A stretch of DNA of 64,000 bases, from positions 6,738,753-6,802,752 of the forward strand of contig NZ_CP034072.1 of NCBI RefSeq assembly GCF_003855255.1. Direction: 5' to 3'. Below the pieces are notes generated by a model. It saw nothing but the letters and a program-made list of their open reading frames with translations. It was not told where the DNA came from and searched no databases. Made by a program: the position numbers and the translations under genes. This DNA is from Mycolicibacterium nivoides (GTDB taxonomy: Bacteria; Actinomycetota; Actinomycetes; Mycobacteriales; Mycobacteriaceae). Below, in pieces: positions 1 to 14,306 of the stretch. Every line of letters starts with the position of its first letter. Positions within the stretch are counted from its first letter, which is position 1.

Positions 1-2295
1 CTGGTCGATGAATTCGATGCTCTGGATGCACAATTGGCGCGAATCACGGTGCTCACGGTCGCGATGATCGCCGCACTTCTGCTCTTCGTGTACCGATCGC
101 TGATCGCGGCCGCCGTCCCGCTGGCCTCGGTGGGGCTGTCCCTGGCGGTCGCGCGTCCGTTGGTCGCGCTGCTCGGCGAGCACGGCGTGATCGAGGTGTC
201 GGTGTTCTCGGTCGCATTGATGTCGGCGATGGTGCTGGGCGCCGGGACCGACTACGGCATCTTCCTGCTCGGCCGCTACCACGAGAACCGGCGGGCGGGC
301 ATGGCGCCGCCGGATGCCTTGGCCGACGCCTACCGCCGGGTTGCGCCGGTGATCGCCGGGTCGTCCGCGACCATCGCCACCGCGCTGTTCTGCCTGACCT
401 TCGCCAAGGTGAATTTCCTGCGCAGTGCCGGAATACCCAGTGGGATAGGTGTTCTCGCGGCGATGCTGGGTGCACTGACATTGACGCCGGCTCTGATCGG
501 CTTGTTCAGCAGGCGCGGTTGGGTCGAGCCGCGGGCGGCACGGATCAGCCGCCGGTGGCGCAAGATCGGCACGGCGGTTGCCCGCTGGCCGGGGCCGATC
601 CTGGTGGTGGCCGCGGGCGCACTGATCGTCTGCACGGTGCCGCTGCTCGGCGCCAAGATCAGCTTCGCGGAGTTGTCCGCACAGCCGGCGAGCACCGACT
701 CCAGCCGCGGATACCAGGCCGTCCACGGCCGGTTCCCGGACAACCGGCTGTTGCCGGAGATCGTCTCGATCCAGGCGGACCGGGACCTGCGGACGCCGGC
801 CGGCCTGATCACAATCGAACGCGTCACCAGGAAGGTCCTTGAGGTGCGCGGGGTGCGCACCGTGCAATCGGCCAGCCGCCCCGCCGGAACCCCGGTGCGC
901 CAGGGCACGCTGACCTACCAGGCCGGCCAGATCGGTGAACAACTCGACGGCACAGCGCAATCCGCGCTCAACGGGATGAACTCCGTGGACACCGTCACGG
1001 CAACCATCGGTCAACTCGATGCCGCTCTCGACGGTATGCAACGCGGGTTGACCGGTGCCGTCGACGGCCTGAACCGGGTCGGGGCCGGCTCGCAGGACAT
1101 CGGTGCGGGCATGACCGGGTTGCAGGGCAACCTGCAGTCGGTGTCCGGCTATGCCGATCCGTTGCGCCAATTCGTCAACAGCAACCCCGACTGTGCGGCC
1201 AACCCGATCTGCGCGGCAGTACAGAAAATCGTCACACCCCTCGATGACGCGGTCAGCGCGACGGGCACCCTCGCCGGCGGGGCGGGCGCGCTCGAGGAGG
1301 GCGCGGCCAGCGCCACCAGCTCACTCGGCGGGGCGGCCAAGGGTGTGGCGACGATGCGCACGGCGCTGACCCAGCTACGCGGTCTCACCTCCACCTTGCG
1401 CTCCAGCCTGGGCAGTGTCGGGCCGCAGATGCAGCAGATGACCGGTTACCTGTCGCAGCTGAGCACCGATTTCGACGGCAGCTCCGAAGGGGGGTTCTAC
1501 CTGCCTCCACGGACTTTCGACGATCCGGAGTACCGCCGGGTGATGGACATGATGTTCTCGCCCGACGGCCACGCCACCCGGCTTCTGGTCTACGGCGACG
1601 GCGAATCCTGGGGGCGTGACGGTGCGGACCGGTCTGCCGAGATCCGCGTTGCCGCCGCCGAGGCACTCAAGGACACCCCGCTGGCGGTCAGCGGCGTCAT
1701 CGACCTCACGGGAGTCGGAACGGCGACCGCGGAACTCATCGAGTATGTGCAACACGACTTCGCCCTGCTCGTGATCGTCACGCTCATCTTGATTTTCGTG
1801 ATCGTGGCCGGCATGCTGCGCAGCCCGGTCGCCGGGATCGTGGTGCTGGCCACCGTCACGATCTCCTACGCATCGGCGCTCGGGGCCAGCGCCGCCATCT
1901 GGCAGTTTCTGGTCGGCCAACCGCTGCACTGGGCGGTGCCCGCACTGGCGTTCATCGCCCTGGTCGCCGTCGGCGCGGATTACAACCTGCTGCTGGCGAT
2001 GCGATTGCGCGACGAGGCCCGGGCCGGAGTGCGCACCGCGACTATCCGGGCATTCGCCGGAACCGGCAGCGTCGTCACCGTCGCGGGGATCGTGTTCGGA
2101 CTGACCATGTTCGCGATGCTCGGTGCCAGTGTGGTGACGATCGCCCAGGTGGGTTCCACGATCGGCATCGGATTGCTGATCGACACCATGGTGGTGCGGA
2201 CCTTCGTGGTGCCGCCCATCGCGGTGCTGCTCGGCCGCTGGTTCTGGTGGCCGCGTCGGGTGCCGGCGACGCCGGGCCCAGACAGCGGGGCATGA
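1..2295 (+). CDS. MmpL/RND-family transporter, C-terminal part (5' end outside window)
   Basis: The reading frame is open from the first base, so the N-terminus lies upstream of the window. It shows two clusters of membrane segments around a large soluble domain (about 690-1750). Each cluster holds the Asp-Tyr pair typical of mycobacterial MmpL proton-relay helices, at 250-255 (GTDYG) and 1978-1983 (GADYN). The soluble domain contains a long helical stretch rich in Gly, Ala and Ser. MmpL proteins export lipids or siderophores across the inner membrane using proton motive force. The substrate cannot be told from this fragment. The next gene begins 65 bases downstream with its own Shine-Dalgarno sequence. 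Confidence 0.9.
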   Translation: MVDEFDALDAQLARITVLTVAMIAALLLFVYRSLIAAAVPLASVGLSLAVARPLVALLGEHGVIEVSVFSVALMSAMVLGAGTDYGIFLLGRYHENRRAGMAPPDALADAYRRVAPVIAGSSATIATALFCLTFAKVNFLRSAGIPSGIGVLAAMLGALTLTPALIGLFSRRGWVEPRAARISRRWRKIGTAVARWPGPILVVAAGALIVCTVPLLGAKISFAELSAQPASTDSSRGYQAVHGRFPDNRLLPEIVSIQADRDLRTPAGLITIERVTRKVLEVRGVRTVQSASRPAGTPVRQGTLTYQAGQIGEQLDGTAQSALNGMNSVDTVTATIGQLDAALDGMQRGLTGAVDGLNRVGAGSQDIGAGMTGLQGNLQSVSGYADPLRQFVNSNPDCAANPICAAVQKIVTPLDDAVSATGTLAGGAGALEEGAASATSSLGGAAKGVATMRTALTQLRGLTSTLRSSLGSVGPQMQQMTGYLSQLSTDFDGSSEGGFYLPPRTFDDPEYRRVMDMMFSPDGHATRLLVYGDGESWGRDGADRSAEIRVAAAEALKDTPLAVSGVIDLTGVGTATAELIEYVQHDFALLVIVTLILIFVIVAGMLRSPVAGIVVLATVTISYASALGASAAIWQFLVGQPLHWAVPALAFIALVAVGADYNLLLAMRLRDEARAGVRTATIRAFAGTGSVVTVAGIVFGLTMFAMLGASVVTIAQVGSTIGIGLLIDTMVVRTFVVPPIAVLLGRWFWWPRRVPATPGPDSGA

Positions 2296-2360
2296 GATCG
2301 GCGAAGTCTGGGTACATCGTCTGGGTCTGGGGAAGGGGGACGACCGACCGGAGAGGATCC

Positions 2361-3362
2361 ATGACGGCACCGCGATTGCAGGTTGACCAGCGCGACGCCG
2401 CCGAAGCCCAGCGCATCGCGGCCGCGGTGAGCTCGGCATTCGCCACCCGGGTGGTCGGCCAGGACCATCTGCGCGAATCGATGTTGGTCGCGCTCCTCGC
2501 CGGCGGGCACCTGCTCCTCGAGAGCGTCCCCGGGCTGGCCAAGACCACGGCGGCACGGGTGGTCGCCGAGTCCATCGACGGCAGCTTCCGGCGTATCCAA
2601 TGCACGCCCGACCTGCTGCCCAGCGACATCATCGGCACCCAGATCTACGAGGCGGCCCGCAACACGTTCGCCACCCAGCTGGGCCCCGTGCATGCCAATA
2701 TCGTGCTGCTCGACGAGATCAACCGCTCCAGCGCCAAGACCCAGAGCGCGATGCTGGAGGCGATGGAGGAACGGCAGACCACGATCGCCGGCGTCGAATA
2801 TCCCATCCCCGAACCGTTTCTCGTCATCGCCACCCAGAACCCCGTCGATCAGGAAGGCACCTATCCGCTGTCGGAGGCCCAGACCGACCGGTTCATGCTC
2901 AAGGAGATCGTGGGTTATCCGTCGATCGAGGACGAGGTCGAGATCGCCGCCCGGATGGACGCCGGCCTCTATGACCGGGGCCACCGTGCCGCCCCGGTCG
3001 TCACCATCGACGACGTGCATCGCGCCCAGGACATCGTGCGCGCGGTGTATCTGGACCGCGCACTGGTCGAGTACGCCAGCCGGCTCGTCGCCGTCACCCG
3101 CGAACCCGGGCACCACCTGCCGGCCAATCTGGCCCGGGTGATCGAGTACGGGGCCAGCCCGCGGGCCACCCTCGCGTTCTGCCGGACGGCGCGCGCCCTG
3201 GCGGTGCTGCGTGGCCGCGACCATGTGGTGCCCGACGACATCGCCCGGCTCGCCCATCGCGTGCTGCGACACCGGTTGATCCTCGGCTTCGAAGCTGCCA
3301 CCGCCCGAATCACCCCCGACGTCGTCGTCGATGCGGTGCTGCGCGCGGTGCAGGTCCCGTGA
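2361..3362 (+). CDS. MoxR-family AAA+ ATPase
   Basis: A 333-residue MoxR ATPase. The Walker A region is at residues 54-62 (ESVPGLAKT, with Ser where MoxR proteins usually have Gly). Walker B is at 114-119 (IVLLDE), followed by the NRxxAKxQxAxLEAMEE stretch typical of the family, the sensor segment IATQNP and the arginine-rich lid. I chose the ATG at 2361 because a GGAGAGG sequence precedes it; an in-frame start at 2247 would overlap the MmpL gene. MoxR ATPases work with VWA proteins as chaperones that assemble or mature envelope complexes. It heads a run of seven-base-or-less spacings or overlaps with the DUF58 and VWA-like genes, so the partners are probably encoded next to it. Confidence 0.93.
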   Translation: MTAPRLQVDQRDAAEAQRIAAAVSSAFATRVVGQDHLRESMLVALLAGGHLLLESVPGLAKTTAARVVAESIDGSFRRIQCTPDLLPSDIIGTQIYEAARNTFATQLGPVHANIVLLDEINRSSAKTQSAMLEAMEERQTTIAGVEYPIPEPFLVIATQNPVDQEGTYPLSEAQTDRFMLKEIVGYPSIEDEVEIAARMDAGLYDRGHRAAPVVTIDDVHRAQDIVRAVYLDRALVEYASRLVAVTREPGHHLPANLARVIEYGASPRATLAFCRTARALAVLRGRDHVVPDDIARLAHRVLRHRLILGFEAATARITPDVVVDAVLRAVQVP

Positions 3363-3369
3363 GGCCGGG

Positions 3370-4236
3370 ATGGGTAGATACCTGGACTCCGCCAAGGCGT
3401 ATGCCGGCCGCGACGTCGGCGGGCTACTCGAAGGTGGCCGCTACGCCCTGGTGCACACCCGCAGCCTGGAATTCGACGAACTGCGCCCCTACGTCCCCGG
3501 AGACGACGTCGGCGACATCGACTGGAAGGCCACCGCGCGCTCCGGGCACACCCTGGCCAAGCGGTTCGTCTCCGAAAAACACCACAAGGTCCTGGTAGTC
3601 GCCGACGCCGGACGCAACAGCTGCGCGCTCGCACCGTCGGGCGAGTTCAAAAGAACTGTGGCACTGCACACCATCGGCGCGATCGGCTTGATGACGCTGC
3701 CCCGGTCCGACGAGATCGCCATGGTGCTCGGCGATCGCCGCGGCAATGTCGACGTCCGGCTGCGCCGCGGCGAGACCCACATCGAAAGCATGCTGCACCG
3801 GTACGACCACCACACCACCGACCGCCCCGGCCCGAGTGACATCCGGGTTCAGCTCGAGTGGGTCGCCCGGCACTACCGGCACCGGCTGCTGATCTTCGTG
3901 GTCTCCGACGAACCGGAGGTCAGCGACGAGTTGGCCGAGGTGCTCGGCTCCCTGACGGCCCGCCACGACGTGTTGTGGGCCCTGCTCAGCGATATGCCCG
4001 CGGTGAGCGCGCGCCGGAACAGCGGTCGCAGCTACGAGGTCGCCGACGGCCGGCAGATCCTGACCGGGCTGGACCCTGACGTCGTCGAGGCCTACCGGCG
4101 CGCGGAAGCGGAACGGCGCGAACAACTTTCCGAATTCCTGACCCTGCAGCGGATACCGCACGCGCGGGTCACCGGGAGCGTTCGGATCAGGGCGGCATTG
4201 ACCGCGATGACCGGGGTGTACGCCCGTGCCGGATGA
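3370..4236 (+). CDS. DUF58 domain-containing protein (MoxR partner)
   Basis: A 288-residue protein with the DUF58 hallmark RPYVPGDDVGDIDWKATAR at about residues 37-55, followed by a divergent VWA-like fold (VVADAGRN). DUF58 proteins are regularly encoded directly after MoxR ATPases and are thought to act with them. The ATG at 3370 lies 7 bases after the moxR stop; the frame is open further upstream, but that would overlap moxR by 32 bases. The 3' end overlaps the next gene by 11 bases, so translation is probably coupled. No membrane segment is visible. The client of the MoxR complex is unknown. Confidence 0.9.
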   Translation: MGRYLDSAKAYAGRDVGGLLEGGRYALVHTRSLEFDELRPYVPGDDVGDIDWKATARSGHTLAKRFVSEKHHKVLVVADAGRNSCALAPSGEFKRTVALHTIGAIGLMTLPRSDEIAMVLGDRRGNVDVRLRRGETHIESMLHRYDHHTTDRPGPSDIRVQLEWVARHYRHRLLIFVVSDEPEVSDELAEVLGSLTARHDVLWALLSDMPAVSARRNSGRSYEVADGRQILTGLDPDVVEAYRRAEAERREQLSEFLTLQRIPHARVTGSVRIRAALTAMTGVYARAG

Positions 4237-4699
4237 TCTGCTGCACCACGTGATCGGCCCGACGCCCTACTCGCCGCTGTGGCTGTGGACCGCGATCGGC
4301 CTGATCGCGGTCCTGTGTGCCTGGTATGCGGCCGTGTTCGTGCTGACCTCCCGGCGACGTCCGGTGCGGGAGCTGCCCGTCCTCGGCGCCGCACGGGCCG
4401 AACTGTTGCGGCGGCGGTCTGCCCGTGCCGTCCGCGCCATCGGAAACCGTTATCGGGCCGGCGATCTCACGGCGGCGGGGGCAGGTGCGGCACTGAGCGG
4501 CGAACTTCGCACCTTCCTGCACGCCGCGACCGGGGTGCAGGCCCAGTACATGCAGGTCGATGCCATCGCGGACAGTGCGGCCGCGCGGGCCGCACCGATC
4601 CTGGCCGAGCTCACCGATATTCAGTTCAATCACCGCTCGGCACTCGACGCCGCCACGGCCAGCGCCACCGCGGAGGAGTTGATCCGCGGATGGACCTGA
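4226..4699 (+). CDS. small membrane protein of the MoxR/VWA operon
   Basis: A 157-residue protein starting at GTG 4226 inside the end of the DUF58 gene. One strong transmembrane helix lies at about residues 17-40, followed by a basic stretch (RRRPVRELP) and an Ala-rich helical cytosolic part. No catalytic motif is visible. Proteins of this size with one N-terminal span sit at the same position in many actinobacterial MoxR-DUF58-VWA operons, so a structural role in the same envelope complex is likely. I do not recognise a named family with certainty. It overlaps the next gene by 10 bases. Confidence 0.75.
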   Translation: MPDDLLHHVIGPTPYSPLWLWTAIGLIAVLCAWYAAVFVLTSRRRPVRELPVLGAARAELLRRRSARAVRAIGNRYRAGDLTAAGAGAALSGELRTFLHAATGVQAQYMQVDAIADSAAARAAPILAELTDIQFNHRSALDAATASATAEELIRGWT

Positions 4700-5652
4700 T
4701 CTGGTGGGCGGTGGCGATCGCCGGCTGCCTCGCACTCGCCGGGTGCGTGGCGTCGGCCCTGCTCCTGAAGCCGTCGGCCGCCCCGGACGAATTCACGCCG
4801 CTGGCCAATACCGGCAGGCTCACCCGGCTGCCCGAGTATGCCAGGGCCGCGCGACGACGGACCATGGCGGCCGTGGTCGCCATGGTCACACTGACGGTCG
4901 CGTTCGTGGCGTCGGCTCTGGTCGCGGCACGCCCCACCGGCCTTCCGTCGTGGAATCGCGCCACCCACGTCGCGACCCCGGAGGACATCATGGTGTGCGT
5001 CGGCGGCCCGCTGACCGATCCCGCGGTCAGCGCCACACTGCAGTACTTCGCAGATCGGGTCGGCTCGTTCGGCACCGAACGGGTCGGGCTGACCTCGGCC
5101 AACCGCCGGGTCATCCCGCTCACCCGTGACTACCAGTACACCGCAGCGCAATTCGCCGCATTCGGTCGGCAGGAAGGTGCCCGGCCGTTCGTCGCGCCGG
5201 TGTCCTACGTCGATTACGCAGCCAGCGTCGAAGACGTGCTGGCCCTGTGTCTGACCGGATTCCCGTCGTTCTTGGAGCGGTCCGCACAACGACGGTCGGT
5301 GATCTACGTCGGACCTGAATCCCTGCCCCGCCCCGGTGAAGTCACACCGTTGTTCGGTCCGGACCGGCTGCGCGACCTGGCGATGACGGCAGGTGTCCAG
5401 GTCAACGCCATCACGCCCGGGCCCGGTGACGGGATTGCGGCGGACCTGACCCGAAGCACCGGCGGGCGGTGGTTTCCTGATTCGGCCGACGTGGCCGCGC
5501 ATCTGGCGGAGATCCGGGATAACCCACCGCAGGCGGGGTCGACCGGCGAGACCGCCGACGTCCGATCCGCCGAAGCTCCAGGGGTTCCCGTGTTGCTGGC
5601 ATTGCTGGCGGTGGCAGTGCTGTGGTGGTGGCCGGTGGTGATGCGGCGATGA
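4690..5652 (+). CDS. membrane-anchored VWA-like protein, MIDAS not conserved
   Basis: A 320-residue protein. Transmembrane helices are predicted at about residues 3-27, 58-80 and 303-318. Between the last two lies a soluble domain with the length and alternating pattern of a von Willebrand A fold, reminiscent of BatA. The first strand reads DIMVCVGGPLTDP where a metal-binding DxSxS would be expected, so the metal site appears lost. It starts at ATG 4690, overlapping the previous stop, and its own stop overlaps the next start (ATGA). It is inferred to be a scaffold in a MoxR-assisted membrane complex. Family assignment rests on topology and neighbours. Confidence 0.7.
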   Translation: MDLIWWAVAIAGCLALAGCVASALLLKPSAAPDEFTPLANTGRLTRLPEYARAARRRTMAAVVAMVTLTVAFVASALVAARPTGLPSWNRATHVATPEDIMVCVGGPLTDPAVSATLQYFADRVGSFGTERVGLTSANRRVIPLTRDYQYTAAQFAAFGRQEGARPFVAPVSYVDYAASVEDVLALCLTGFPSFLERSAQRRSVIYVGPESLPRPGEVTPLFGPDRLRDLAMTAGVQVNAITPGPGDGIAADLTRSTGGRWFPDSADVAAHLAEIRDNPPQAGSTGETADVRSAEAPGVPVLLALLAVAVLWWWPVVMRR

Positions 5653-6575
5653 GGCTCGAACCGGTACTTCCGCCATTGCTCGTCGCAGTGCTCGCGGTGG
5701 CGCTCGTCGTGGCTCGTGCGATCACCTTCGGGCGGGTTCGGGCGCAAGGCGGCGGCTGGTCGGTGGTCTGGCGGTGGTCGTCACTCACCACGGCGGGATT
5801 CCTGCTGCTCGTGGCCGCCCTCGGTCCCGTCGCCGGCGGGACCGATGACCTCGTGCCCCGGCCGGCCGGCGATCGCGACCCCAACATCTTTGTGATCCTT
5901 GACCGTTCGCCGGACATGTCGGGGCCGGATCCCGACGGCCGTTCCCGGATCTCGGCGGCGCGGGGCGACATCGCGGCCCTGATCGAACGCCATCCACAGG
6001 CCCGCTTCGCGCTGATCGGCTTCGCCGACCGGCCGTCCGTGGACTGGCCGCTGTCCGCCGATACCTGGAGCCTGCGCCCGGTGGTGGCTGCGACGAATGC
6101 GCGCCCCGCGACGGCGGATGCCCCGGATCCCAACGTCGGCGCAGCCGCCAGCATCCTGCGCTACCAGCTGATCAGCGCGGTGCAGCAGTTTCCGAGGGCA
6201 CAGAACCTCGTCTTCTATCTCGGGGCTGGCGCCCCGGAATCGCAAGCACCGCAACGCGAATTCCAGCTGCCCGAGAATGCCGTGGACGGTGGCGCGGTAC
6301 TGGGGTACGACGACGCCGGGGCGCAGGCACTTCGCGGGGTCGCCGAACAGATCGGGGTGCCGTTCGTCCCGCGCACCGACGCGACACCGTTGGATGAGGC
6401 ACTCCCCGATGACGACACGCGAAGTCAGGCACCTGCGGCCGTAGCGGTGGCCGCCGCCGTCGAGCTGTACTGGGTCTTCGCCGGGGTGGCGGCCCTGCTC
6501 ATCCTGGTCGAGCTCTATCTGGTGCTGCGCGAATTCCGCCGCACCCAGCCGATCGACGTGGAGCCGCGGTCATGA
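5649..6575 (+). CDS. membrane-anchored VWA-domain protein (BatA/BatB-like)
   Basis: A 308-residue protein with helices near residues 8-25 and 42-62 and a C-terminal helix at about 276-295, enclosing a VWA domain. The metal-site strand reads VILDRSPDMSG, close to the canonical DxSxS with Asp in place of the second Ser, and is followed by a helix and strands as in VWA folds (ARFALIGFADRP). The start codon overlaps the preceding stop as ATGA, and the stop overlaps the next start as ATGA. VWA proteins of this kind are partners of MoxR ATPases. It probably forms a pair with the degenerate VWA protein just upstream. Confidence 0.8.
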   Translation: MRLEPVLPPLLVAVLAVALVVARAITFGRVRAQGGGWSVVWRWSSLTTAGFLLLVAALGPVAGGTDDLVPRPAGDRDPNIFVILDRSPDMSGPDPDGRSRISAARGDIAALIERHPQARFALIGFADRPSVDWPLSADTWSLRPVVAATNARPATADAPDPNVGAAASILRYQLISAVQQFPRAQNLVFYLGAGAPESQAPQREFQLPENAVDGGAVLGYDDAGAQALRGVAEQIGVPFVPRTDATPLDEALPDDDTRSQAPAAVAVAAAVELYWVFAGVAALLILVELYLVLREFRRTQPIDVEPRS

Positions 6576-7258
6576 GCACGGTCCGTCGTCGGCTTCTGGT
6601 GTACTCGGCCCCGGTGGCGCTGGTGCTGGTCATCGCGGTCGTCAAACTGCTGTCGGTCGTGGTGATCGGTAACTCGGCAGCCGCCAGTTTCGCCGACCGT
6701 GACACCGAGGCACTGGCGGGCGAGGTCGCGCGACTTCAGGTGCTCAACGTCGTCCAACCCGGCAAGGCGAACTTCGCCGCGGGCGCGCTGGCAGTTCTGG
6801 AGGACCGGCTGGCCGATGCCGATCAGGACTTCGCCGTGGCGGTCGAGCGGCTCGACACAGCTGAATCATGTTCGGCCAGGGTGAATCTGGAATTGGTCCG
6901 GGAGACCCTCGGCGACCGTGCGGCCGCGGCGTCCAACAGCCGGATGGCACTGACCCATTACCTCGCCGCACGAGATGTGGTGGACCGGGCGCCCGTCGGG
7001 TGCTTTGTCGGCAATGCCGACCCCGATCCGGATCGGCGCACCGTGCGCAACGATGCGCCGGCGCGGTTGAGCAGCAAGATCGATGGGGCCGGCGTCATCC
7101 TGCCGCCGAACTCGCCACCGCCACCACCGGCAGCACAGGCCCCGCCGCCGGGGCCGGCCGGCGCGGCGACCACGCCGCCGGGCAACCGGCTCGACCCCAA
7201 GGCCGGCGATCCGCTGGACCGGCTGCAACAGATCCTGCGGGATGCGGCCAGAGGCTAG
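6572..7258 (+). CDS. membrane-anchored helical-repeat protein with Pro-rich tail
   Basis: A 228-residue last member of the MoxR/VWA operon, coupled by ATGA overlap. One N-terminal transmembrane helix lies at about residues 8-32. The middle part (about 45-140) is helical and resembles TPR-type pairs (NFAAGALAVLEDRLADADQDF). A Pro/Ala-rich stretch follows at about 178-208, then a short conserved-looking end. TPR-containing proteins also occur at the end of classical Bat operons, which supports this reading. No enzymatic motif is present. Exact function unknown. Confidence 0.7.
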   Translation: MSTVRRRLLVYSAPVALVLVIAVVKLLSVVVIGNSAAASFADRDTEALAGEVARLQVLNVVQPGKANFAAGALAVLEDRLADADQDFAVAVERLDTAESCSARVNLELVRETLGDRAAAASNSRMALTHYLAARDVVDRAPVGCFVGNADPDPDRRTVRNDAPARLSSKIDGAGVILPPNSPPPPPAAQAPPPGPAGAATTPPGNRLDPKAGDPLDRLQQILRDAARG

Positions 7259-7291: not shown

Positions 7292-7891
7292 ATGGCTGTG
7301 GCAGACGGGTTGTCTGCGCGTGAGGCGAAGCGCCTGCAGACGCGTGAGCGGTTGATGGGTGCGGCGATCGCGGAGTTCAAGCGTGCGGGGATGGCCGAAG
7401 CGGACGTGGGCGCGATCGTGACCGCCGCCGGCGTCGCACACGGCACGTTCTTCTTCCATTTCCCCACCAAGGAGCACGTGCTCCTGGAACTGGAACAGCG
7501 CGAGGAGCAGCGGATCGCCAAGCAGTACACCCAGTTCCTCAAGAAGCCGCACAGCCTGGAGGAAGGGCTGCGCGAGGCCATGCGGCTGGTGGTCGGCCTG
7601 GAGCGCAGACTCGGTGGGGTGTTGTTCAAAGACTTTCTGGCCCTGCACTTCTCACAGACCCGGCCACCTGCCCAGGACAGCCAGGAGCACCCGGTGATCT
7701 CCGGGGTGGCCCGCGAGATCGAGCTGGCCCAGCAGCAGGGTGAGGTCGCCGCCGACGTCAACTCGTGGAACAGCGCGGTGTTCTTCCTGCTCGGTTTCTA
7801 TGCGCTGCTGATCACCACCAACGATTGGCCGACCCGCGACGCCCTGCTGGAGGACTACGTGGTCAGAACCATGCGGAGCCTGTCCCCCTAG
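7292..7891 (+). CDS. TetR-family transcriptional regulator
   Basis: A 199-residue TetR protein. The N-terminal helix-turn-helix runs from about residue 14 to 60 (TRERLMGAAIAEFKRAG, then DVGAIVTAAGVAHGTFFFHF). The C-terminal ligand domain is all-helical. It lies immediately upstream of, and in the same direction as, the AveC-like/NorQD/P450 operon. Two related palindromes (7924-7943 and 8705-8716) lie downstream in front of operon genes and none in front of tetR itself, so it is the obvious candidate local regulator. Ligand unknown; by context it may sense the P450 substrate. Confidence 0.9.
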   Translation: MAVADGLSAREAKRLQTRERLMGAAIAEFKRAGMAEADVGAIVTAAGVAHGTFFFHFPTKEHVLLELEQREEQRIAKQYTQFLKKPHSLEEGLREAMRLVVGLERRLGGVLFKDFLALHFSQTRPPAQDSQEHPVISGVAREIELAQQQGEVAADVNSWNSAVFFLLGFYALLITTNDWPTRDALLEDYVVRTMRSLSP

Positions 7892-7923: not shown

Positions 7924-7943
7924 GTTGACTATAGTCAGTCAAC
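7924..7943. promoter_or_regulatory. palindromic operator, probable TetR site 1
   Basis: GTTGACTATAGTCAGTCAAC reads as 7-base inverted arms (GTTGACT and AGTCAAC) around 6 bases. It also contains the perfect 12-base palindrome TGACTATAGTCA at 7926-7937. It lies between the tetR stop and the first operon gene (TTG at 7972), where it would cover the promoter. Confidence 0.65.
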
Positions 7944-7971: not shown

Positions 7972-8691
7972 TTGAATCTGCCGACCATCAGACCGCGCCG
8001 CACGGTCGCGGCAGGTGTGCGCGCGCCGTCGATCGATGACCACGACGAGCAGTCCCGGCTGGCTCAGCGCCAGGCGGACAAGTGGCTGATCGCCGGATCG
8101 CTACTGATCGGCAGCGCCGTCCTCGGCATCTTCGGGCTGCCCGTCTTCCTGCGCGGCGTGTGGTTGCTCCGGCAGGCCCAGCGGGACGGTTTATCGGTGC
8201 GGCCGATGATGGTCACGCTGCTCGGCTATCTCGTCATCATCGATGCGGCGATCAACGCGATGGGTTGGTCGCTGGACCTGATCGGCAACCACTCCTTGCT
8301 GGCCAGGGTCCTTTTGACCGGCTGGGGCAACATGTTTGACGCCGGCTACTTCTGGCATTTCAACGAGCTCTGGGTGGGCGGTGCGGGTGGTCCGGGGGAG
8401 AAGGCCTGGGAGGTCGCCCTCATCCTCACGGTGTTCACCATGCGCATCGCCGCCGGCATCGGGTTCCTGCAGATGAAGCGCTGGGGACAGCAGTGGATGA
8501 TCGTCACCTGCTGGATGGGCGTGGTGATCTGGTGCGGCTACGTCTTCAACATGACGATGTTCGCCGACGTCCGCTACGCCGGGGTGATCTTCCCGGTGAT
8601 CGGCTGGTGGCTCTACGACATCTTCTACATCACCCCGTTCCTGGCGATCCCGTACCTGCACACGGTCAACCGGGAGATCTTCACCGATTAA
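7972..8691 (+). CDS. polytopic membrane protein, AveC-like (copy 1)
   Basis: A 239-residue integral membrane protein starting at TTG 7972, chosen because AGGAGG lies at 7962-7967 and because the start context (MNLP) matches its paralogue at 11320. About six transmembrane segments are visible. The most conserved stretch between the copies is [21 protein letters not shown], about residues 117-137, with Asp123, His129 and Glu132 as possible metal or catalytic residues. The architecture resembles proteins annotated in actinobacteria as spirocyclase AveC-like, but I could not verify this. It shares a 135-base identical block with copy 2. The neighbouring NorQ/NorD-like chaperones and P450 suggest it is an enzyme or client that needs maturation. 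Confidence 0.6.
   Translation: MNLPTIRPRRTVAAGVRAPSIDDHDEQSRLAQRQADKWLIAGSLLIGSAVLGIFGLPVFLRGVWLLRQAQRDGLSVRPMMVTLLGYLVIIDAAINAMGWSLDLIGNHSLLARVLLTGWGNMFDAGYFWHFNELWVGGAGGPGEKAWEVALILTVFTMRIAAGIGFLQMKRWGQQWMIVTCWMGVVIWCGYVFNMTMFADVRYAGVIFPVIGWWLYDIFYITPFLAIPYLHTVNREIFTD
8538..8672 (+). repeat. 135-base block identical to 11862-11996 (copy 1)
   Basis: The 3' part of the first AveC-like gene is base-for-base identical to the second copy over this interval, including every third codon position. It encodes the last two membrane helices. Flanking parts of the two genes are clearly diverged. Confidence 0.9.
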
Positions 8692-8704
8692 GGCTCTCAA
8701 ATAT

Positions 8705-8716
8705 TGACTTAAGTCA
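8705..8716. promoter_or_regulatory. palindromic operator, probable TetR site 2
   Basis: TGACTTAAGTCA is a perfect 12-base palindrome of the same form (TGACT-NN-AGTCA) as the core of the site at 7926-7937. It lies just after the first AveC-like gene and 26 bases before the tiny ORF at 8742, suggesting a second regulated promoter inside the operon. Confidence 0.6.
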
Positions 8717-8741
8717 GAAATGTGACCATGAAGGAGAACGC

Positions 8742-8840
8742 ATGTTCTGGGAAATCTGCCGCTACATCGGCGCGTGGGGCGGCACCGCCCTGATCATCTG
8801 GTTCTGGTACTGGATGTTCTCCAACATCGGAACCTTCTGA
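8742..8840 (+). CDS. tiny single-span membrane protein (32 aa)
   Basis: A 32-residue ORF with AAGGAG at 8730-8735, six bases before its ATG. Almost the whole peptide is one hydrophobic, aromatic-rich helix (IGAWGGTALIIWFWYWMF). It lies between a probable operator and the NorD-like gene, whose ATG follows after 5 bases. Tiny transmembrane proteins often stabilise or regulate larger membrane complexes; by position it may belong with the AveC-like proteins. Too short for family assignment. The ribosome binding site and operon position are the main support for it being real. Confidence 0.6.
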   Translation: MFWEICRYIGAWGGTALIIWFWYWMFSNIGTF

Positions 8841-8845
8841 CTTCG

Positions 8846-10369
8846 ATGGCCGATCACGACGCGATCGCCGTCGAACGCAGCTGTGCCCTGACCGCCGTCG
8901 CGCTGAGCGGCGGGCGGCGCGACGGGGCGCGGCTGGTCACCGGCGAGCAGCGTGGTTTCGGGTTGACCGCGGCGCTCGACCTCGTGCTCGTGCCTTACCC
9001 GGCCGGGGTTCCCGGCTGGACCCGGCGCTCGTTGACCTGCGGGGTGGCGCTGCAGTGCGCACCGTCGAAGGAGCGGCTCCTGGAGTACCGGCTGGGCGAG
9101 CTGTCCGGCCGGGAGCTGCGTGCCCTCAGCGTGGTGGAGGCCGGGGTGGCGCTGGGCTGGATCACTGCCCGGTGGCCCGGCCTGGTCGGCGAAATCCGAA
9201 GACTCCTACCGGAACTGGTGCATGCCGATGGCGATACGCCGGCCACCGAGATGCTGCGCCAGGCGGTTGAACTGGCGCGCAGCAACAGGTCCCTCGATGT
9301 CGATCCGCTGCTGGGCCGGCTGCCCGTGGCCCACACCGCCCCGGCCGGCCTGGCCGACGGGCTGCGCCGCAGATTCGGCCGGATGCCGTGGACCAGTACC
9401 CAAAAGCGCATGCCCAGGCCCTATTCCGTACCGGTCGGCGGGGACGGCGGAGTACGCAACCCCAACCTCCCGCCGCCGAGCCGGCCACAGGACAACGACC
9501 TCGACGTCACCCCGCAGCACCGCCCCGGGATTCCCTACCCGGAATGGAACACGTGGACCGACAGCTTCCTGCGCGATCACGTCGCCGTCGTCGAGCATCC
9601 GAAGCCGCCGCGCGGCCGCCAGTCGGTGCCGGTGTCGGCCGATCTGCGCGCCTGGTTCGCCGAACACACCCACCGCGCGATGACCGACGGCCTGGAGGAC
9701 GGATCCGATCTGGACGTGGATTCCTATGTGCGCCATCACATCGACCTGGCCACGGGCGAGGCGGGCGAACCCCGGGTGTTCCGGGAGCTCTTGCCCGGCA
9801 ACCGGGACGTGTCCACGGCGCTGCTGCTCGACGGCAGCTCGTCGCTGGGGGTGCACGGCGGCCGGATCTTCCGGCTTGAGCTGGCCTGCGCCGATGCGCT
9901 GTCGCGGGCGATGACCCAGGCTCGTGAACGCCACGGCATCTTCGTGTTCACCGGGAACACCCGTCACCGGGTGGAAGTCCAGTGCCTCAAGGACTTCGAG
10001 GACCGGCGGTTCGTCCCGCCGAGTGCGGCCGGCCTGGTCACCGGGGGATACACCCGCCTGGGCGCGCCGCTGCGACATCTGACCAGTCGCCTGCTGGCCC
10101 AACCCTCGGAGCGGCGGCTGCTCATCGTCATCGGCGACGGCCTGATCTCCGATGAGGGCTATGAGGGCCGCTACGCCTGGGCGGACACCGCGCATGCGGT
10201 CGAGGAGGCCAATGACGCCGGGGTCGCCGTGTACTACGTCGGCGTCGGGCCGACCCGCGTCGACCCGTTGCCCGAGGTGTTCGGACCACGGCGGTCCCAG
10301 CGGATCCGCCGGGTGGAGGAGCTGCCGCGCGTGCTGGCGCACGTGCACCGCGAGCTGGTTTCGGCCTGA
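8846..10369 (+). CDS. NorD/CbbO-like VWA-domain protein
   Basis: A 507-residue soluble protein. The C-terminal VWA domain has a full metal site, with DGSSS at residues 329-333, a Thr in GGYTRLG and Asp in IGDGLISD at about 431. The following segment YEGRYAWADTAHAVEEA matches the end of NorD/CbbO proteins, where an Asp-Thr and a helix follow the metal site. NorD and CbbO act with the AAA+ proteins NorQ and CbbQ to insert iron into nitric oxide reductase or to remodel Rubisco. The ATPase partner is encoded 16 bases downstream. No nitric oxide reductase or Rubisco is present, so the client should be different. ATG 8846 is chosen over upstream starts that overlap the tiny gene. Confidence 0.82.
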   Translation: MADHDAIAVERSCALTAVALSGGRRDGARLVTGEQRGFGLTAALDLVLVPYPAGVPGWTRRSLTCGVALQCAPSKERLLEYRLGELSGRELRALSVVEAGVALGWITARWPGLVGEIRRLLPELVHADGDTPATEMLRQAVELARSNRSLDVDPLLGRLPVAHTAPAGLADGLRRRFGRMPWTSTQKRMPRPYSVPVGGDGGVRNPNLPPPSRPQDNDLDVTPQHRPGIPYPEWNTWTDSFLRDHVAVVEHPKPPRGRQSVPVSADLRAWFAEHTHRAMTDGLEDGSDLDVDSYVRHHIDLATGEAGEPRVFRELLPGNRDVSTALLLDGSSSLGVHGGRIFRLELACADALSRAMTQARERHGIFVFTGNTRHRVEVQCLKDFEDRRFVPPSAAGLVTGGYTRLGAPLRHLTSRLLAQPSERRLLIVIGDGLISDEGYEGRYAWADTAHAVEEANDAGVAVYYVGVGPTRVDPLPEVFGPRRSQRIRRVEELPRVLAHVHRELVSA

Positions 10370-10385
10370 GGACGGAAGGAACACC

Positions 10386-11195
10386 GTGAACACAGATGTC
10401 TATTACTCCAACGGCAACGAGATTCAGCTGTTCGAGCAGGCGTACGCCCGCCGGATCCCGGTGATGCTGACCGGGCCGACCGGCTGCGGCAAGACCCGGC
10501 TGGTCGAGCACATGGGCTCGTTGTTGCAGCGCCCGGTGGTGACGATCAGCTGCCACGACGACCTCACCAGCTCGGATCTGGTGGGCCGGTTCATGGTCAC
10601 CGGCGGCGACGTGGTGTGGACCGACGGGCCACTGACCCGGGCGGTCAAGGCCGGCGCCATCTGCTATCTCGACGAGGTCGTCGAGGCCCGCCACGATTCG
10701 CTGGCCATCCTGCATTCGCTCACCGACCACCGCCGTGCGCTCTATCTGGACCGGGCCGGCGAGGTGGTGCGGGCACCGGAGACCTTCATGCTGGTGTGCT
10801 CCTACAACCCGGCCTATCGCAGTTCTCTCAAGGAGCTGAAACCGTCCTTCCGGCAACGGTTTGCCACGCTGCCGATGACCTACCTGCCGCCCGATCGCGA
10901 GGCCGAGGTGATCGTCGCGGAGACCGGCGTGGGCCGCGACACCGCGCGGCGCCTGGTGGCCTGCGCGACGGCGATCCGCAGCGCGGACGCCGCCTTCCAT
11001 TTCGAGCCGCCATCGACCCGGGTGCTGGTCACCACGGCGCAGCTGGTTGCCGAAGGCGCCACCGAACTGGATGCCGCACAGGCCTGCGTGCTCGCACCGC
11101 TGAGCACCGACGGCGCGATCAGCGACGGGCTGCGCGAGGTCGCGGCGGCCGGCCTGCTCGACGGCACGACCCGGAACCGAGGAAAGGAAGTCTGA
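10386..11195 (+). CDS. NorQ/CbbQ/MoxR-type AAA+ ATPase
   Basis: A 269-residue ATPase, the length of NorQ/NirQ/CbbQ proteins. Walker A is GPTGCGKT at residues 30-37 and Walker B is ICYLDE at about 92-97. The post-Walker B region EARHDSLAILHSLTDHRR and the segment SYNPAYRSSLKELKPSFRQRF are family hallmarks. GTG 10386 is preceded by GGAAGGA. It forms a pair with the NorD-like VWA protein. Such pairs use ATP hydrolysis to insert metal into or remodel a target protein; here the likely targets are the flanking membrane proteins or the P450. The stop overlaps the next start by one base. Confidence 0.9.
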   Translation: MNTDVYYSNGNEIQLFEQAYARRIPVMLTGPTGCGKTRLVEHMGSLLQRPVVTISCHDDLTSSDLVGRFMVTGGDVVWTDGPLTRAVKAGAICYLDEVVEARHDSLAILHSLTDHRRALYLDRAGEVVRAPETFMLVCSYNPAYRSSLKELKPSFRQRFATLPMTYLPPDREAEVIVAETGVGRDTARRLVACATAIRSADAAFHFEPPSTRVLVTTAQLVAEGATELDAAQACVLAPLSTDGAISDGLREVAAAGLLDGTTRNRGKEV

Positions 11196-11323
11196 TGAAC
11201 GAACAGGAGCGAAAGCGCAAGCGGGCGTTGATCGTTCTGCAGGTGGTCATCTACGGCTACCTGTTCGCGATGTTCTGCATCCAGCTGTACATGTCGTTCG
11301 CCCGAGGCTGGTGGGATCTGTGA
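11195..11323 (+). CDS. tiny single-span membrane protein (42 aa)
   Basis: A 42-residue protein with a strong ribosome binding site (GAGGAAAGGAAG) just before ATG 11195. A basic N-terminus (ERKRKRA) is followed by one transmembrane helix (about residues 11-34) and the end RGWWDL. Its stop overlaps the start of the second AveC-like gene, so translation is coupled. It mirrors the 32-residue protein at 8742, although the sequences are not obviously related. A role as a small subunit of the adjacent membrane protein is inferred from position only. Confidence 0.65.
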   Translation: MNEQERKRKRALIVLQVVIYGYLFAMFCIQLYMSFARGWWDL

Positions 11324-12015
11324 ACCTGCCGTTGGCCCAGCCGGATTCGGTGTCGCTCGAAGATCATCACGAGCAGTCCCGGCTGGCTCAGCGCCGGGCC
11401 GACAAGTGGATGATCGTCGGGGCGCTGCTGATGGGCATGTGGATTCCCGGGCTGATCGGCTTCCCGATCTTCATGCGCGGGGTATGGCTGCAGCGGCAGG
11501 CCCAGCGCGACGGATTGTCGGTGCGGCCGATGATCGTCACGCTGATCGGCTACCTGGTGCTGATCGACGGCGCGCTCAACAGCCTGGGCTGGGCACTGGA
11601 CCTGGTGGCCAACCACACCCTGATCAACCGCGTGCTGATGGTCGGCTGGGGCAACATGTTCGACGCCGGCTACTTCTGGCACTACAACGAACTGTGGGTC
11701 GGCGGTTCGGCCGGGCCGGGTGAGAAGTCGATGGTCTTCGGCATGATCATCACGGTCTTCGCGATGCGCTGCGCCGCCGCCATCGGATTCCTGCAGATGA
11801 AACGCTGGGGCCACCAGTGGATGATCGTCACCTGCTGGATGGGCGTGCTCATCTGGTGCGTCTACGTCTTCAACATGACGATGTTCGCCGACGTCCGCTA
11901 CGCCGGGGTGATCTTCCCGGTGATCGGCTGGTGGCTCTACGACATCTTCTACATCACCCCGTTCCTGGCGATCCCGTACCTGCACACGGTCAACCGCGAA
12001 ATCTTCTCCGACTGA
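11320..12015 (+). CDS. polytopic membrane protein, AveC-like (copy 2)
   Basis: A 231-residue paralogue of the protein at 7972. GTG 11320 is chosen because the start context MNLP matches copy 1 and the start overlaps the preceding stop. About six membrane helices are visible. The conserved block [18 protein letters not shown] has Asp115, His121 and Glu124. The two copies diverge most at the N-terminus and in the helix 1 region but are identical over the last 45 codons at DNA level. Both copies kept in one operon suggests a heterodimer or two related reactions. The AveC-like label is a recollection of actinobacterial annotations and needs confirmation. Confidence 0.6.
11862..11996 (+). repeat. 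135-base block identical to 8538-8672 (copy 2)
   Basis: Identical over 135 bases to the corresponding part of the first AveC-like gene, with no synonymous change. The ORFs lie 3.3 kb apart in direct orientation, so the block could support gene conversion or deletion of the intervening norQD-like genes. Confidence 0.9.
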
Positions 12016-12037
12016 ACAACTTCGAAAGGAGCGCATT

Positions 12038-12466
12038 GTGTCGATCCCCGCAGAAAGTACTGAGACAGAACGAGACCCGGCCCAGGATCTGCCGCCGGGC
12101 ACCACCCCGTACTACGCGAACATGCACAAATGGATCAAGCGGGCCGTGCTGGTGTGCCTGGTCGCCCTGGTCGTCGAAGGCGCGTTCACGTTGCCGTTCA
12201 TGGCCGTCTACTACGGCTACCCGACGCTGAGCATGACCGAGATCTGCAGTGAACTGCTCAAGGTCCGCTACTCCGACGACACGCTCGAGTGCAAGCACCC
12301 GTACCCGATGTTCGGTCCCCCGGAAGGGGCTGAGGGCAAGGACACCGCCCGCGACGAGTGGGGTATCCAGCCCACGCCGAAGTACGACCGGTTGGGCTTT
12401 CGCGAACTGGTGCGCCGTCACGAGGAACGGCTGGCCCGCCAGGCTCAAGAACAGCAGCCAAGGTAG
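12038..12466 (+). CDS. single-span membrane protein of the P450 operon, unknown family
   Basis: A 142-residue protein from GTG 12038 with GAAAGGAG upstream. An N-terminal soluble part of about 30 residues precedes one or two hydrophobic segments (about residues 34-60). The C-terminal region contains two Cys (EICSELL and LECKHPYP) and ends in a charged helix. I do not recognise the family. It lies 22 bases after the second AveC-like gene and 9 bases before the P450, so it is probably part of the same functional unit, perhaps a subunit or electron-transfer adaptor at the membrane. Confidence 0.65.
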
Positions 12467-12475
12467 GGACCGGCC

Positions 12476-13726
12476 GTGCCCAAATCGCCTGAAGAGCATG
12501 CCGACAACTGGGATCTGCGTCACGAGGACTTCAACGATCACGACCTGCTCTACGAGGTGTATTCGGTGATGCGCCGGCGGGCACCGATCGCGCACACCGA
12601 GTCACCGTTCTTCCCGACCGACGACGCCTGGGTCGCGGTGGGTTACGACGAGTGCTACCAGATCGCGCAGGACTGGCAGCACTTCTCCAGCAACCCGACA
12701 CCCGAGGGTGCCCTGCAGGCCGGCGGTGATCTGGTGATCACCCTCGACCCGCCGCGACAGCAGAAGTTCCGAAAGGTGCTCAACCCGTACTTCTCTCCGG
12801 CCCGGATGAAGGCGCTGGCACCGCAGATCCGGGCCGAAACCGACGAGCTGATCGATGCATTCATCGAGCACGGCTCGGGGGACCTGGCTCAGGTCGCCTG
12901 GCAGCAGCCCGGCGTCGTGTTCTTCAAATATCTGCTCGGCATGCCTGTCGGCGATGTCCCGTTGTGCATCGAGCTGGTCGACACCGCGCTCAACGGCGGC
13001 ACCGAGCAGGCCCGCATGCTGGCCTGGGGCGGGTTGTATCAGCATCTGCACGATGCGGTGTCGGCCCGGACCACGGGACCGGCCCGCGACGACATGATCG
13101 ACGTGCTGCTGCACGCCGAGATCGACGGGGAACCGTTGCCGTTCAACGACATCGTCGCCAATGCGATCCTGCTGGTCCAGGCCGGGCTCGAAACCACGGC
13201 CAGTGCAATGTCTTTCGCATTCCACTACCTGGCCACCCACCCCGGCGAGCGTGACCGGCTGATCGCTGAGCCCGAGATCCTGCCCAGGGCGGTCGAGGAG
13301 TTCATCCGCTTCGCCGGGTCGATCCACAGCCTGCCCCGCACCGTGGCCAAGGACGCCGAGCTGGGCGGGCAGCGGTTCTGCCCTGGCGATTCGATTCTGA
13401 TCAACTACGCGGCGGCCAACCGGGATGCCAACCAGTTCCCCGACCCGGATCGCTGTGTGCTGGACCGCTCGGCGAACCGGCACCTCGGCTTCGGGGCCGG
13501 TGTGCACCGGTGCCTCGGCTCCAATCTGGCGCGCCTGGAGTTCGCCGTCGGACTCGAGCAGGTGCTCGCCCGGATGCCCGATCTCGCCTTGGATCCCGGG
13601 GCCACGGCGGTGTTCCACGGCAACTCCGTGACGCGTGGCTACCGACGGATTCCGGTCGTGTTCACCGCGGGCGAGCGGTCGACTGTATTGCGGGGACCTA
13701 ACGATTCGGTGGTCTCTCGGGGTTGA
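12476..13726 (+). CDS. cytochrome P450
   Basis: A 416-residue P450. The I-helix oxygen-activation motif AGLETT is at residues 236-241, the ExxR helix reads EEFIRFA, and the haem loop FGAGVHRCLG has the ligand Cys346. GTG 12476 starts 9 bases after the preceding stop. Bacterial P450s of this class insert oxygen into lipophilic substrates and need a ferredoxin and reductase, which are not encoded next to it. Its position at the end of the TetR/AveC-like/NorQD operon suggests it oxidises the product or substrate of the membrane proteins. Subfamily not assigned. Confidence 0.93.
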   Translation: MPKSPEEHADNWDLRHEDFNDHDLLYEVYSVMRRRAPIAHTESPFFPTDDAWVAVGYDECYQIAQDWQHFSSNPTPEGALQAGGDLVITLDPPRQQKFRKVLNPYFSPARMKALAPQIRAETDELIDAFIEHGSGDLAQVAWQQPGVVFFKYLLGMPVGDVPLCIELVDTALNGGTEQARMLAWGGLYQHLHDAVSARTTGPARDDMIDVLLHAEIDGEPLPFNDIVANAILLVQAGLETTASAMSFAFHYLATHPGERDRLIAEPEILPRAVEEFIRFAGSIHSLPRTVAKDAELGGQRFCPGDSILINYAAANRDANQFPDPDRCVLDRSANRHLGFGAGVHRCLGSNLARLEFAVGLEQVLARMPDLALDPGATAVFHGNSVTRGYRRIPVVFTAGERSTVLRGPNDSVVSRG

Positions 13727-13766: not shown

Positions 13767-14306
13767 ATGTCTGGTACCTGGTCCCCGCGTCGCCTTATCA
13801 CCGCTGCGGTGACGGCGGGTATTACGTTGCTCGCGGTGGGGATTCCATCGGCCACGGCCGCCCCGGCCAATGATGCGCGGGGATATGTGGATTCGACGGC
13901 GCGGTGCGACAGTGCGGACGCGACCGTGTTGTTCGGCAGCACCGACGCCTCCCGGGTGGCGATCTGTTCGGTGCCGGGCGGCAAGTACGAGTACCGCGGT
14001 GTGCGGTTGCGCGACGGTGCCAAGCTGATCGTGCCGGCGACGCGCAACGACGACGGTGCGTTCCGCGTGGAGAACGCCGGGATCGAATACCTGGTGACCT
14101 CGAAGTCGCTGGTGCTCAGCGTGGGGGAGAAGGTGATCCGCGAGGAGGCGATGACCGACTTCCACCGTCCGGGGGCACCCGCCGCTGCGGACTCGCCGAA
14201 GTCTCCGGGCGCGGCCCCGGCTCCGGCGACGGCGGCGCCCACGCCGACGACCCCGCTGCCGCCGCCGCTGGCGGCCGAAGTCGGTGGCGGCGGCGCCCGT
14301 CGCTGA
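13767..14306 (+). CDS. conserved secreted protein with Pro/Ala-rich tail
   Basis: A 179-residue protein with a signal peptide (RRLITAAVTAGITLLAVG) and probable cleavage after ATA near residue 31. The mature part has two Cys (about 47 and 67) that could form a disulfide and a compact beta-rich region. It ends in a low-complexity tail rich in Ala and Pro (about 137-172). It is likely exported to the periplasm or cell wall. No catalytic motif or named family recognised. It stands alone, 40 bases after the P450. Confidence 0.7.
   Translation: MSGTWSPRRLITAAVTAGITLLAVGIPSATAAPANDARGYVDSTARCDSADATVLFGSTDASRVAICSVPGGKYEYRGVRLRDGAKLIVPATRNDDGAFRVENAGIEYLVTSKSLVLSVGEKVIREEAMTDFHRPGAPAAADSPKSPGAAPAPATAAPTPTTPLPPPLAAEVGGGGARR

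What the first reader, a model, noticed from the sequence alone, without database searches (positions are those of the whole stretch)
7972..13726. A NorQ/NorD-type chaperone pair embedded with two AveC-like membrane proteins, tiny membrane proteins and a P450
Seen: AAA+ (NorQ/CbbQ length and motifs) plus VWA (NorD-like, intact metal site) sandwiched between two paralogous six-helix membrane proteins, with 32- and 42-residue single-span proteins, one further membrane protein and a P450 in one operon. Known: NorQ/NorD and CbbQ/CbbO insert metal into or remodel a specific client. No known client is present. Inference: the AveC-like proteins, with conserved Asp/His/Glu in [14 protein letters not shown], are the clients, forming a new membrane metalloenzyme or spirocyclase-type activity coupled to the P450.
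Basis: partly seen in the sequence, partly recalled or inferred. Interest (0 to 1): 0.85.

Follow-up and report, generated by a model that had tools for sequence, protein, structure and literature searches.

The report
NorQ/NorD chaperones with new membrane client
In mycobacteria and their relatives, a pair of chaperones known for putting iron into a respiratory enzyme is tied by conserved gene order and a shared DNA switch to a quite different set of membrane proteins, which are probably its real target.

Summary
In detail: every gene named is there, plus two perfect operator palindromes. The conserved core is t32-D-Q-t42-A2-M3. All 26 close D loci of 298 genomes carry t32-D-Q-t42-A; M3 follows in 20 of the 20 fetched wider. 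Of 80 named loci, 79 carry the whole core and the 80th starts inside D. Q and the VWA half of D match solved NorQ and NorD. The genome showed no RuBisCO and no NorB-type client.

The client inference is partly supported. The P450 is not core (39 of 80). His124 and Glu127 of the proposed metal motif are lost in both most divergent homologues. A1/A2 match no AveC profile; weak signals point to the EBP/EXPERA fold. Yet the genome's three other NorQ proteins lie beside true AveC_like (PF17198) proteins, and in 150 Mycobacteriales genomes 29 of 31 strong NorQ hits lie beside one kind or the other.

Best reading: NorQ/D remodels an EXPERA-like membrane complex within a variable oxidative pathway. 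Activity, substrate and any metal are unproven.

The parts
7292..7891 (+). TetR-family regulator, probably of this locus
   Evidence: PF00440 39.5 bits; orthologue upstream of D in 72 of 80 named loci
7926..7937 (.). operator palindrome TGACTATAGTCA upstream of A1
   Evidence: 2 sites in window against 0.02 expected; 3 sites in the whole genome; 177 sites against 8 for a control pattern in 100 loci
7972..8691 (+). A1, polytopic membrane protein, paralogue of A2
   Evidence: 77% to A2; two A copies in 17 of 20 wide loci, one in the other 3
8705..8716 (.). operator palindrome TGACTTAAGTCA upstream of t32
8742..8840 (+). t32, 32-residue membrane peptide
   Evidence: aligned in 100 rows, window included, with C-terminal GTF; codon-position pattern of a gene
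8846..10369 (+). D, NorD-like protein with C-terminal VWA domain and its own N-terminal part
   Evidence: residues 225-507 match solved NorD 9qhd_G, E 1.2e-34; no PDB sequence matches 1-212
10386..11195 (+). Q, NorQ/CbbQ-type MoxR AAA+ ATPase
   Evidence: AAA_5 and CbbQ_C above cut-off; solved NorQ 9qh4_A, E 2.3e-77
11195..11323 (+). t42, 42-residue single-span membrane protein
   Evidence: aligned in 101 rows, window included; codon-position pattern
11311..12015 (+). A2, core polytopic membrane protein, proposed client of Q/D
   Evidence: EBP/EXPERA lead
12038..12466 (+). M3, one-span protein with a Cys-containing tail, core subunit
   Evidence: 20 of 20 wide loci, 80 of 80 named loci
12476..13726 (+). 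cytochrome P450, accessory rather than core
   Evidence: PF00067 99 bits; orthologue in 39 of 80 named loci (38 by the criteria)

Best explanation
The locus encodes a membrane protein complex (A2, M3, t32, t42, with a second A-type subunit A1 in mycobacteria) together with its own NorQ/NorD-type remodelling machine. Q is expected to form an AAA+ hexamer; the VWA domain of D to plug into it and, through its MIDAS metal and its own N-terminal part, to grip the A2-containing complex; ATP hydrolysis would then twist the client open so that it becomes active, either by receiving a cofactor or by releasing a stuck ligand. A2 most likely has an EBP/EXPERA-type fold and works by acid-base chemistry on a hydrophobic polycyclic substrate; by my inspection only, its invariant Asp86/Asn90, Asp118 and Glu138 stand about where EXPERA enzymes keep their key residues. 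The P450 and other neighbours (SDR, DapB-like reductase, other P450s, ERG2/sigma-1-like protein) are interchangeable steps of the surrounding pathway. Shown: gene content, conserved order, NorQ/NorD relatedness, shared operator sequence. Inferred: that the operator binds this TetR, the client, its fold, its chemistry, the mode of remodelling.
Confidence: 0.5

Rival explanations
1. A new membrane metalloenzyme: NorQ/D insert a metal into A2, as they insert FeB into nitric oxide reductase, with Asp118, His124, Glu127 or other polar residues as ligands.
For: NorQ/D's known job is metal insertion into a membrane protein (PMC13036017, passages and Discussion read). Asp86, Asp97, Asp118, Glu138 are 149 of 149, His124 and Glu127 147 of 149. 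The one homologue seen without Q/D nearby (L055) has Asn at position 124 and at the His102 column (with a His one residue before), while L076, which has Q/D, keeps His at 102 and has Asp at 124. The same operator stands before a COX3-type (NorE-like, recalled) module.
Against: His124 and Glu127 are not kept in L076, which still has Q and D. No metalloprotein family matched A1/A2. The motif region is the worst part of the model. The L055 contrast is a single case.
Confidence: 0.25
2. The P450 or another soluble oxygenase of the pathway is the client of Q/D, and the membrane proteins only anchor it.
For: The P450 is the last gene of the run, with 9 bases between it and M3.
Against: An orthologue of this P450 is present in 39 of 80 named loci and 7 of 20 wide loci, while Q/D and the membrane genes are constant; P450s are not known to need NorQ/D (recalled).
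Confidence: 0.06
3. The membrane complex is not an enzyme but a transporter, lipid-binding or sensor module, and Q/D move or open it with ATP.
Against: A set of acidic and amide residues is invariant in 149 of 149, and the neighbourhood is enzymatic: P450s, SDRs, DapB-like reductases, ERG2-like proteins.
Confidence: 0.19

Closest known systems
NorQ/NorD of the nor cluster (norCBQDEF)
   Same: Q residues 5-255 match solved NorQ; D residues 225-507 match the solved NorD VWA region to its C-terminus; MIDAS kept; small membrane proteins in the operon; a COX3-type gene (NorE-like, recalled) behind the same operator elsewhere in the genome
   Different: No norB/norC; D residues 1-212 have no match in the PDB; client genes are A1/A2/M3
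CbbQ/CbbO RuBisCO activase
   Same: Q matches solved CbbQ (6l1q, E 1.2e-65); CbbQ_C domain
   Different: No RuBisCO in the genome
AveC_like family PF17198 (avermectin spirocyclase relatives)
   Same: True members lie near the three other NorQ proteins of this genome; A and the NorQ-linked AveC_like protein of L158 carry an Asp-x-x-x-Asn step in a helix, by eye
   Different: A1/A2 do not hit the profile and hhalign gives prob 9.8%; A2 is 234 aa with M3 separate, the L158 AveC_like protein is 376 aa in one chain
EBP / EXPERA superfamily (sterol isomerase, TMEM97, TM6SF)
   Same: Best structural rows and a weak Pfam hit; invariant acidic residues; an ERG2/sigma-1-like gene nearby in 27 of 80 loci
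   Different: Below cut-off; EXPERA proteins are not known to need AAA+/VWA chaperones (recalled); extra N-terminal helices in the model; separate M3, t32, t42 subunits
MoxR-VWA system RavA/ViaA
   Same: AAA+ plus VWA pair acting on a respiratory enzyme complex (PMC10585395, start of abstract in the listing)
   Different: Q carries CbbQ_C; its placing in another MoxR subfamily than RavA is recalled

Membership tests
NorQ/CbbQ MoxR AAA+ | AAA_5 plus CbbQ_C above curated cut-offs, Walker motifs | tested here: met
   126 and 74 bits; GPTGCGKT and CYLDE in the sequence; solved NorQ E 2.3e-77
NorD | C-terminal VWA domain with MIDAS, alignable to NorD to its C-terminus | tested here: met
   residues 225-507 to 349-646 of 9qhd_G, E 1.2e-34; Pfam VWA itself slightly under cut-off, 23 of 23.8 bits
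NorD | NorD-type N-terminal domain | tested here: inconclusive
   no match to residues 1-212; sequence only
cNOR maturation system | client norB/norC in the operon or genome | tested here: not met
   operon read in full; two COX1 hits in the genome, both 582-586 aa frames with HPEVY; norC was not searched for
CbbQ/CbbO | RuBisCO client | tested here: not met
   no PF00016 match in the genome; 5 of 14 controls rang
AveC_like PF17198 (for A1/A2) | match to the PF17198 profile | tested here: not met
   0 families at E 0.1 for A1 and A2, no PF17198 among 25 members at E 10; profile-profile prob 9.8%
EXPERA/EBP PF05241 (for A1/A2) | match to the PF05241 profile | tested here: inconclusive
   2 of 25 members, best E 9.4e-4 and 19.9 bits against cut-off 25.7, none for A2 itself
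EXPERA/EBP | EBP-like four-helix core | tested here: inconclusive
EXPERA/EBP | sterol-isomerase activity | not testable with these tools
   needs biochemistry
Cytochrome P450 | PF00067 above cut-off | tested here: met
   99.2 bits

The most novel reading that the evidence does not exclude
Mycobacteriales hold a whole class of MoxR-VWA (NorQ/NorD) machines dedicated to membrane enzymes of the AveC-like and EXPERA-like kinds, complete with NorE-like and tiny NorF-like partners: a nor-type assembly apparatus recruited to a non-respiratory, sterol-isomerase-fold enzyme complex. That would be a new client class for this chaperone family and would mean that some spirocyclase or isomerase-type membrane enzymes need ATP-driven activation or cofactor insertion.
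Probability: 0.35. Interest if true: 0.85.

Novelty: new variant of a known kind. Interest (0 to 1): 0.62.

Why it matters
NorQ/NorD-type chaperones have few known clients (recalled). A second membrane client class would show what such machines recognise in common and would make testable a family of genes now called 'hypothetical protein', 'NorD' or 'MorD' in mycobacteria; A-type proteins are also recorded from Nocardia, Rhodococcus and Gordonia. It also offers a handle on AveC-like enzymes, whose structure and catalytic mechanism are still being worked out (PMC13303154, passages read).

Tried and rejected
AveC membership of A1/A2: Pfam scans and two profile comparisons (prob 3.6 and 9.8%) gave nothing significant. 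M3 as a split-off piece of AveC_like: by eye its membrane segment resembles one AveC_like helix, but hhalign gives prob 5%, E 0.008; left as a hint. t42 as CcoQ: E 0.093, far under cut-off. P450 as client: disfavoured by its patchy presence. Naming the D family by 'MorD': the name stands in public records, but paper searches gave no description. Literature on a NorQ/NorD-AveC or EXPERA link: nothing relevant in the listings (open-licence PMC only, listings capped; 'avec' matches French text, so searches are noisy). PMC5819568 only names an AveC family protein as an indel marker (passages). Structure of the AveC_like paralogue: pLDDT 72, no clear match. The first Pfam and NCBIfam scans of Q used a wrong frame (10382) and found nothing; repeated in frame. 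The ORFs read for COX1 were wrong-frame; corrected. The A sequences (148 distinct ORFs plus A2) were picked by a regular expression that itself fixes Met or Val 152, Arg153 and the MK-WG stretch, so only other positions are informative; gap handling makes its His102 count unreliable, so one search is used there. Of the 20 wide loci 5 are also among the 80 named loci, so the sets are not independent; the 80 are the best of 312 relatives. In one search L141 failed all position tests because its contig starts inside D; one search shows Q, t42, A2 and M3 in it.
Full report
What is there. The window lies in a complete 6.9-Mb genome; a 98%-identical D protein is deposited from Mycolicibacterium septicum. 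Reading the stretch gives TetR, A1, t32, D, Q, t42, A2, M3 and a P450, all on the plus strand; from t32 on, gaps are 22 bases or less or genes overlap. A1 and A2 are paralogues (77%) and the only two matches of A2 in the genome.

The core unit. A search of 298 genomes of the order with D found a match in 34; 26 genomes (own included) have a close one (66-100%), the other hits being about 28-35% identical and mostly over the VWA half. All 26 close loci have t32-D-Q-t42-A contiguous. Of these I took 20 as stretches of up to 20 kb: M3 follows in 20 of 20; a second A copy upstream (A1) is present in 17 and missing in three, from two other genera; the window's P450 has an orthologue at 75-88% in 7. 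A single scan of named genomes with an A alignment kept the best 80 of 312 loci: 79 have A, t32, D, Q, t42, A, M3 in place; the 80th (L141) starts inside D and holds Q, t42, A, M3. The P450 orthologue is in 39 of 80, the TetR in 72. These 80 were found through A and are near relatives, so they test A without D/Q only narrowly. In a genome of another class (L076) t32, A, D and Q are still side by side at 50, 41, 38 and 52%, and two short membrane ORFs there resemble t42 and the M3 membrane segment by eye.

The machine. Q matches solved NorQ (E 2.3e-77), CbbQ and midasin rings. D residues 225-507 match solved NorD to its last residue (E 1.2e-34), with MIDAS residues kept; the first 212 residues match nothing in the PDB. 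In the published NorQD model (PMC13036017, passages and Discussion read; PMC9976466, passages read) the VWA finger sits in the ring, and NorD is proposed to grip the membrane client at its N-terminal domain and at the VWA site or linker, twisting it open to let iron in. The nor cluster there also holds norE and norF, small membrane proteins. I infer that the same machine here has a different grip and hence a different client. The genome has no RuBisCO match, and its two COX1 proteins carry HPEVY, recalled as the oxidase motif.

Other NorQ proteins tell the same story. The genome has four CbbQ_C proteins. The three besides Q lie within 3 kb of a PF17198 AveC_like protein (two of those confirmed by hmmscan) and have a D relative beside them. 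In 150 Mycobacteriales genomes, 36 CbbQ_C rows were listed: 31 at 75 bits or more and 5 weak (about 40 bits or less). Of the 31, 19 have PF17198 within 3 kb, 10 are the A-type locus, and 2 have neither: one (L224) looks like a decayed counterpart of the L158 locus, with AveC_like missing and Q cut to its C-terminal part; the other (L225) has different neighbours. Conversely 21 of 34 PF17198 rows lie within 3 kb of a NorQ and 13 do not, four of these 9-14 kb away. At phylum scale (296 genomes) NorQ occurs in 24 genomes outside the family, and 22 of them have no PF17198. So NorQ/D and AveC-type or A-type membrane proteins are linked in this lineage, not everywhere.

AveC. Whether AveC_like and A are distant cousins is open.

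Regulation and wider module. TGACTNNAGTCA occurs at three places in the whole genome, one place for the reversed control: before A1, before t32, and before a second TetR (60% identical to the first) that lies head to head with a membrane protein gene followed by a COX3-family gene (E 1.3e-13); NorE is, as I recall, of that family. That membrane protein/COX3 pair is found in 3 of 101 loci searched: in L127, L130 and L136 it lies within about 4 kb of A1. Over 100 loci the palindrome occurs 177 times against 8 for the reversed control, in 95 loci; 158 of the 177 lie within 260 bases upstream of A1, TetR or t32. Two of the three loci from other genera have none. So one candidate regulon joins A, D/Q and a COX3-type gene.

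Pathway. Neighbours vary: DapB-like reductases in 61 of 80 named loci, an SDR in 48, P450 relatives (three query types) in 27 to 43, an ERG2/sigma-1-like protein in 27 (families). The M. branderi homologue lies among acyl-CoA dehydrogenases, SDRs and a Rieske protein. This looks like breakdown or modification of a hydrophobic polycyclic compound; the substrate is unknown.

Verdict. Observation confirmed; interpretation partly supported. The strongest claim is the client link, resting on conserved order and on the parallel AveC_like cases. Fold and chemistry are leads.

Noticed in passing
window 1923-7258: Just upstream lies a second AAA+/VWA system: MoxR (AAA_3 + AAA_lid_2), DUF58 and a protein with a weak VWA_2 match ending at 6575, so two different MoxR-VWA machines are neighbours here.
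   Followed up: partly
L058 15474-16106 and relatives: An ERG2/sigma-1 receptor-like gene (PF04622, 100 bits) sits in 27 of 80 named loci and 7 of 20 wide loci near an EBP-like protein; ERG2 and EBP are, as I recall, two unrelated sterol C8 isomerases.
   Followed up: partly
L226 6386-9192 (own genome 2.67 Mb): A COX3-family gene and a 263-aa membrane protein behind the same palindromic operator as the window locus, with a TetR paralogue.
   Followed up: partly
L055 14714-15675: Mycobacterium branderi plasmid: an A homologue (34%) after an 83-residue ORF that by eye looks like t32 plus the M3 membrane segment, without D or Q in the 30 kb fetched.
   Followed up: partly
L224 9380-11576: Decayed NorQ/D locus: AveC_like missing and Q reduced to a C-terminal piece while D stays open.
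   Followed up: yes
G414:C1:1260524-1307753: One genome region of another class holds two NorQ, two AveC_like, the A-D-Q locus and, by eye, Mce-type genes within 47 kb.
   Followed up: no
window 13767-14306: Possibly exported, proline-rich protein with no Pfam match right after the P450.
   Followed up: no
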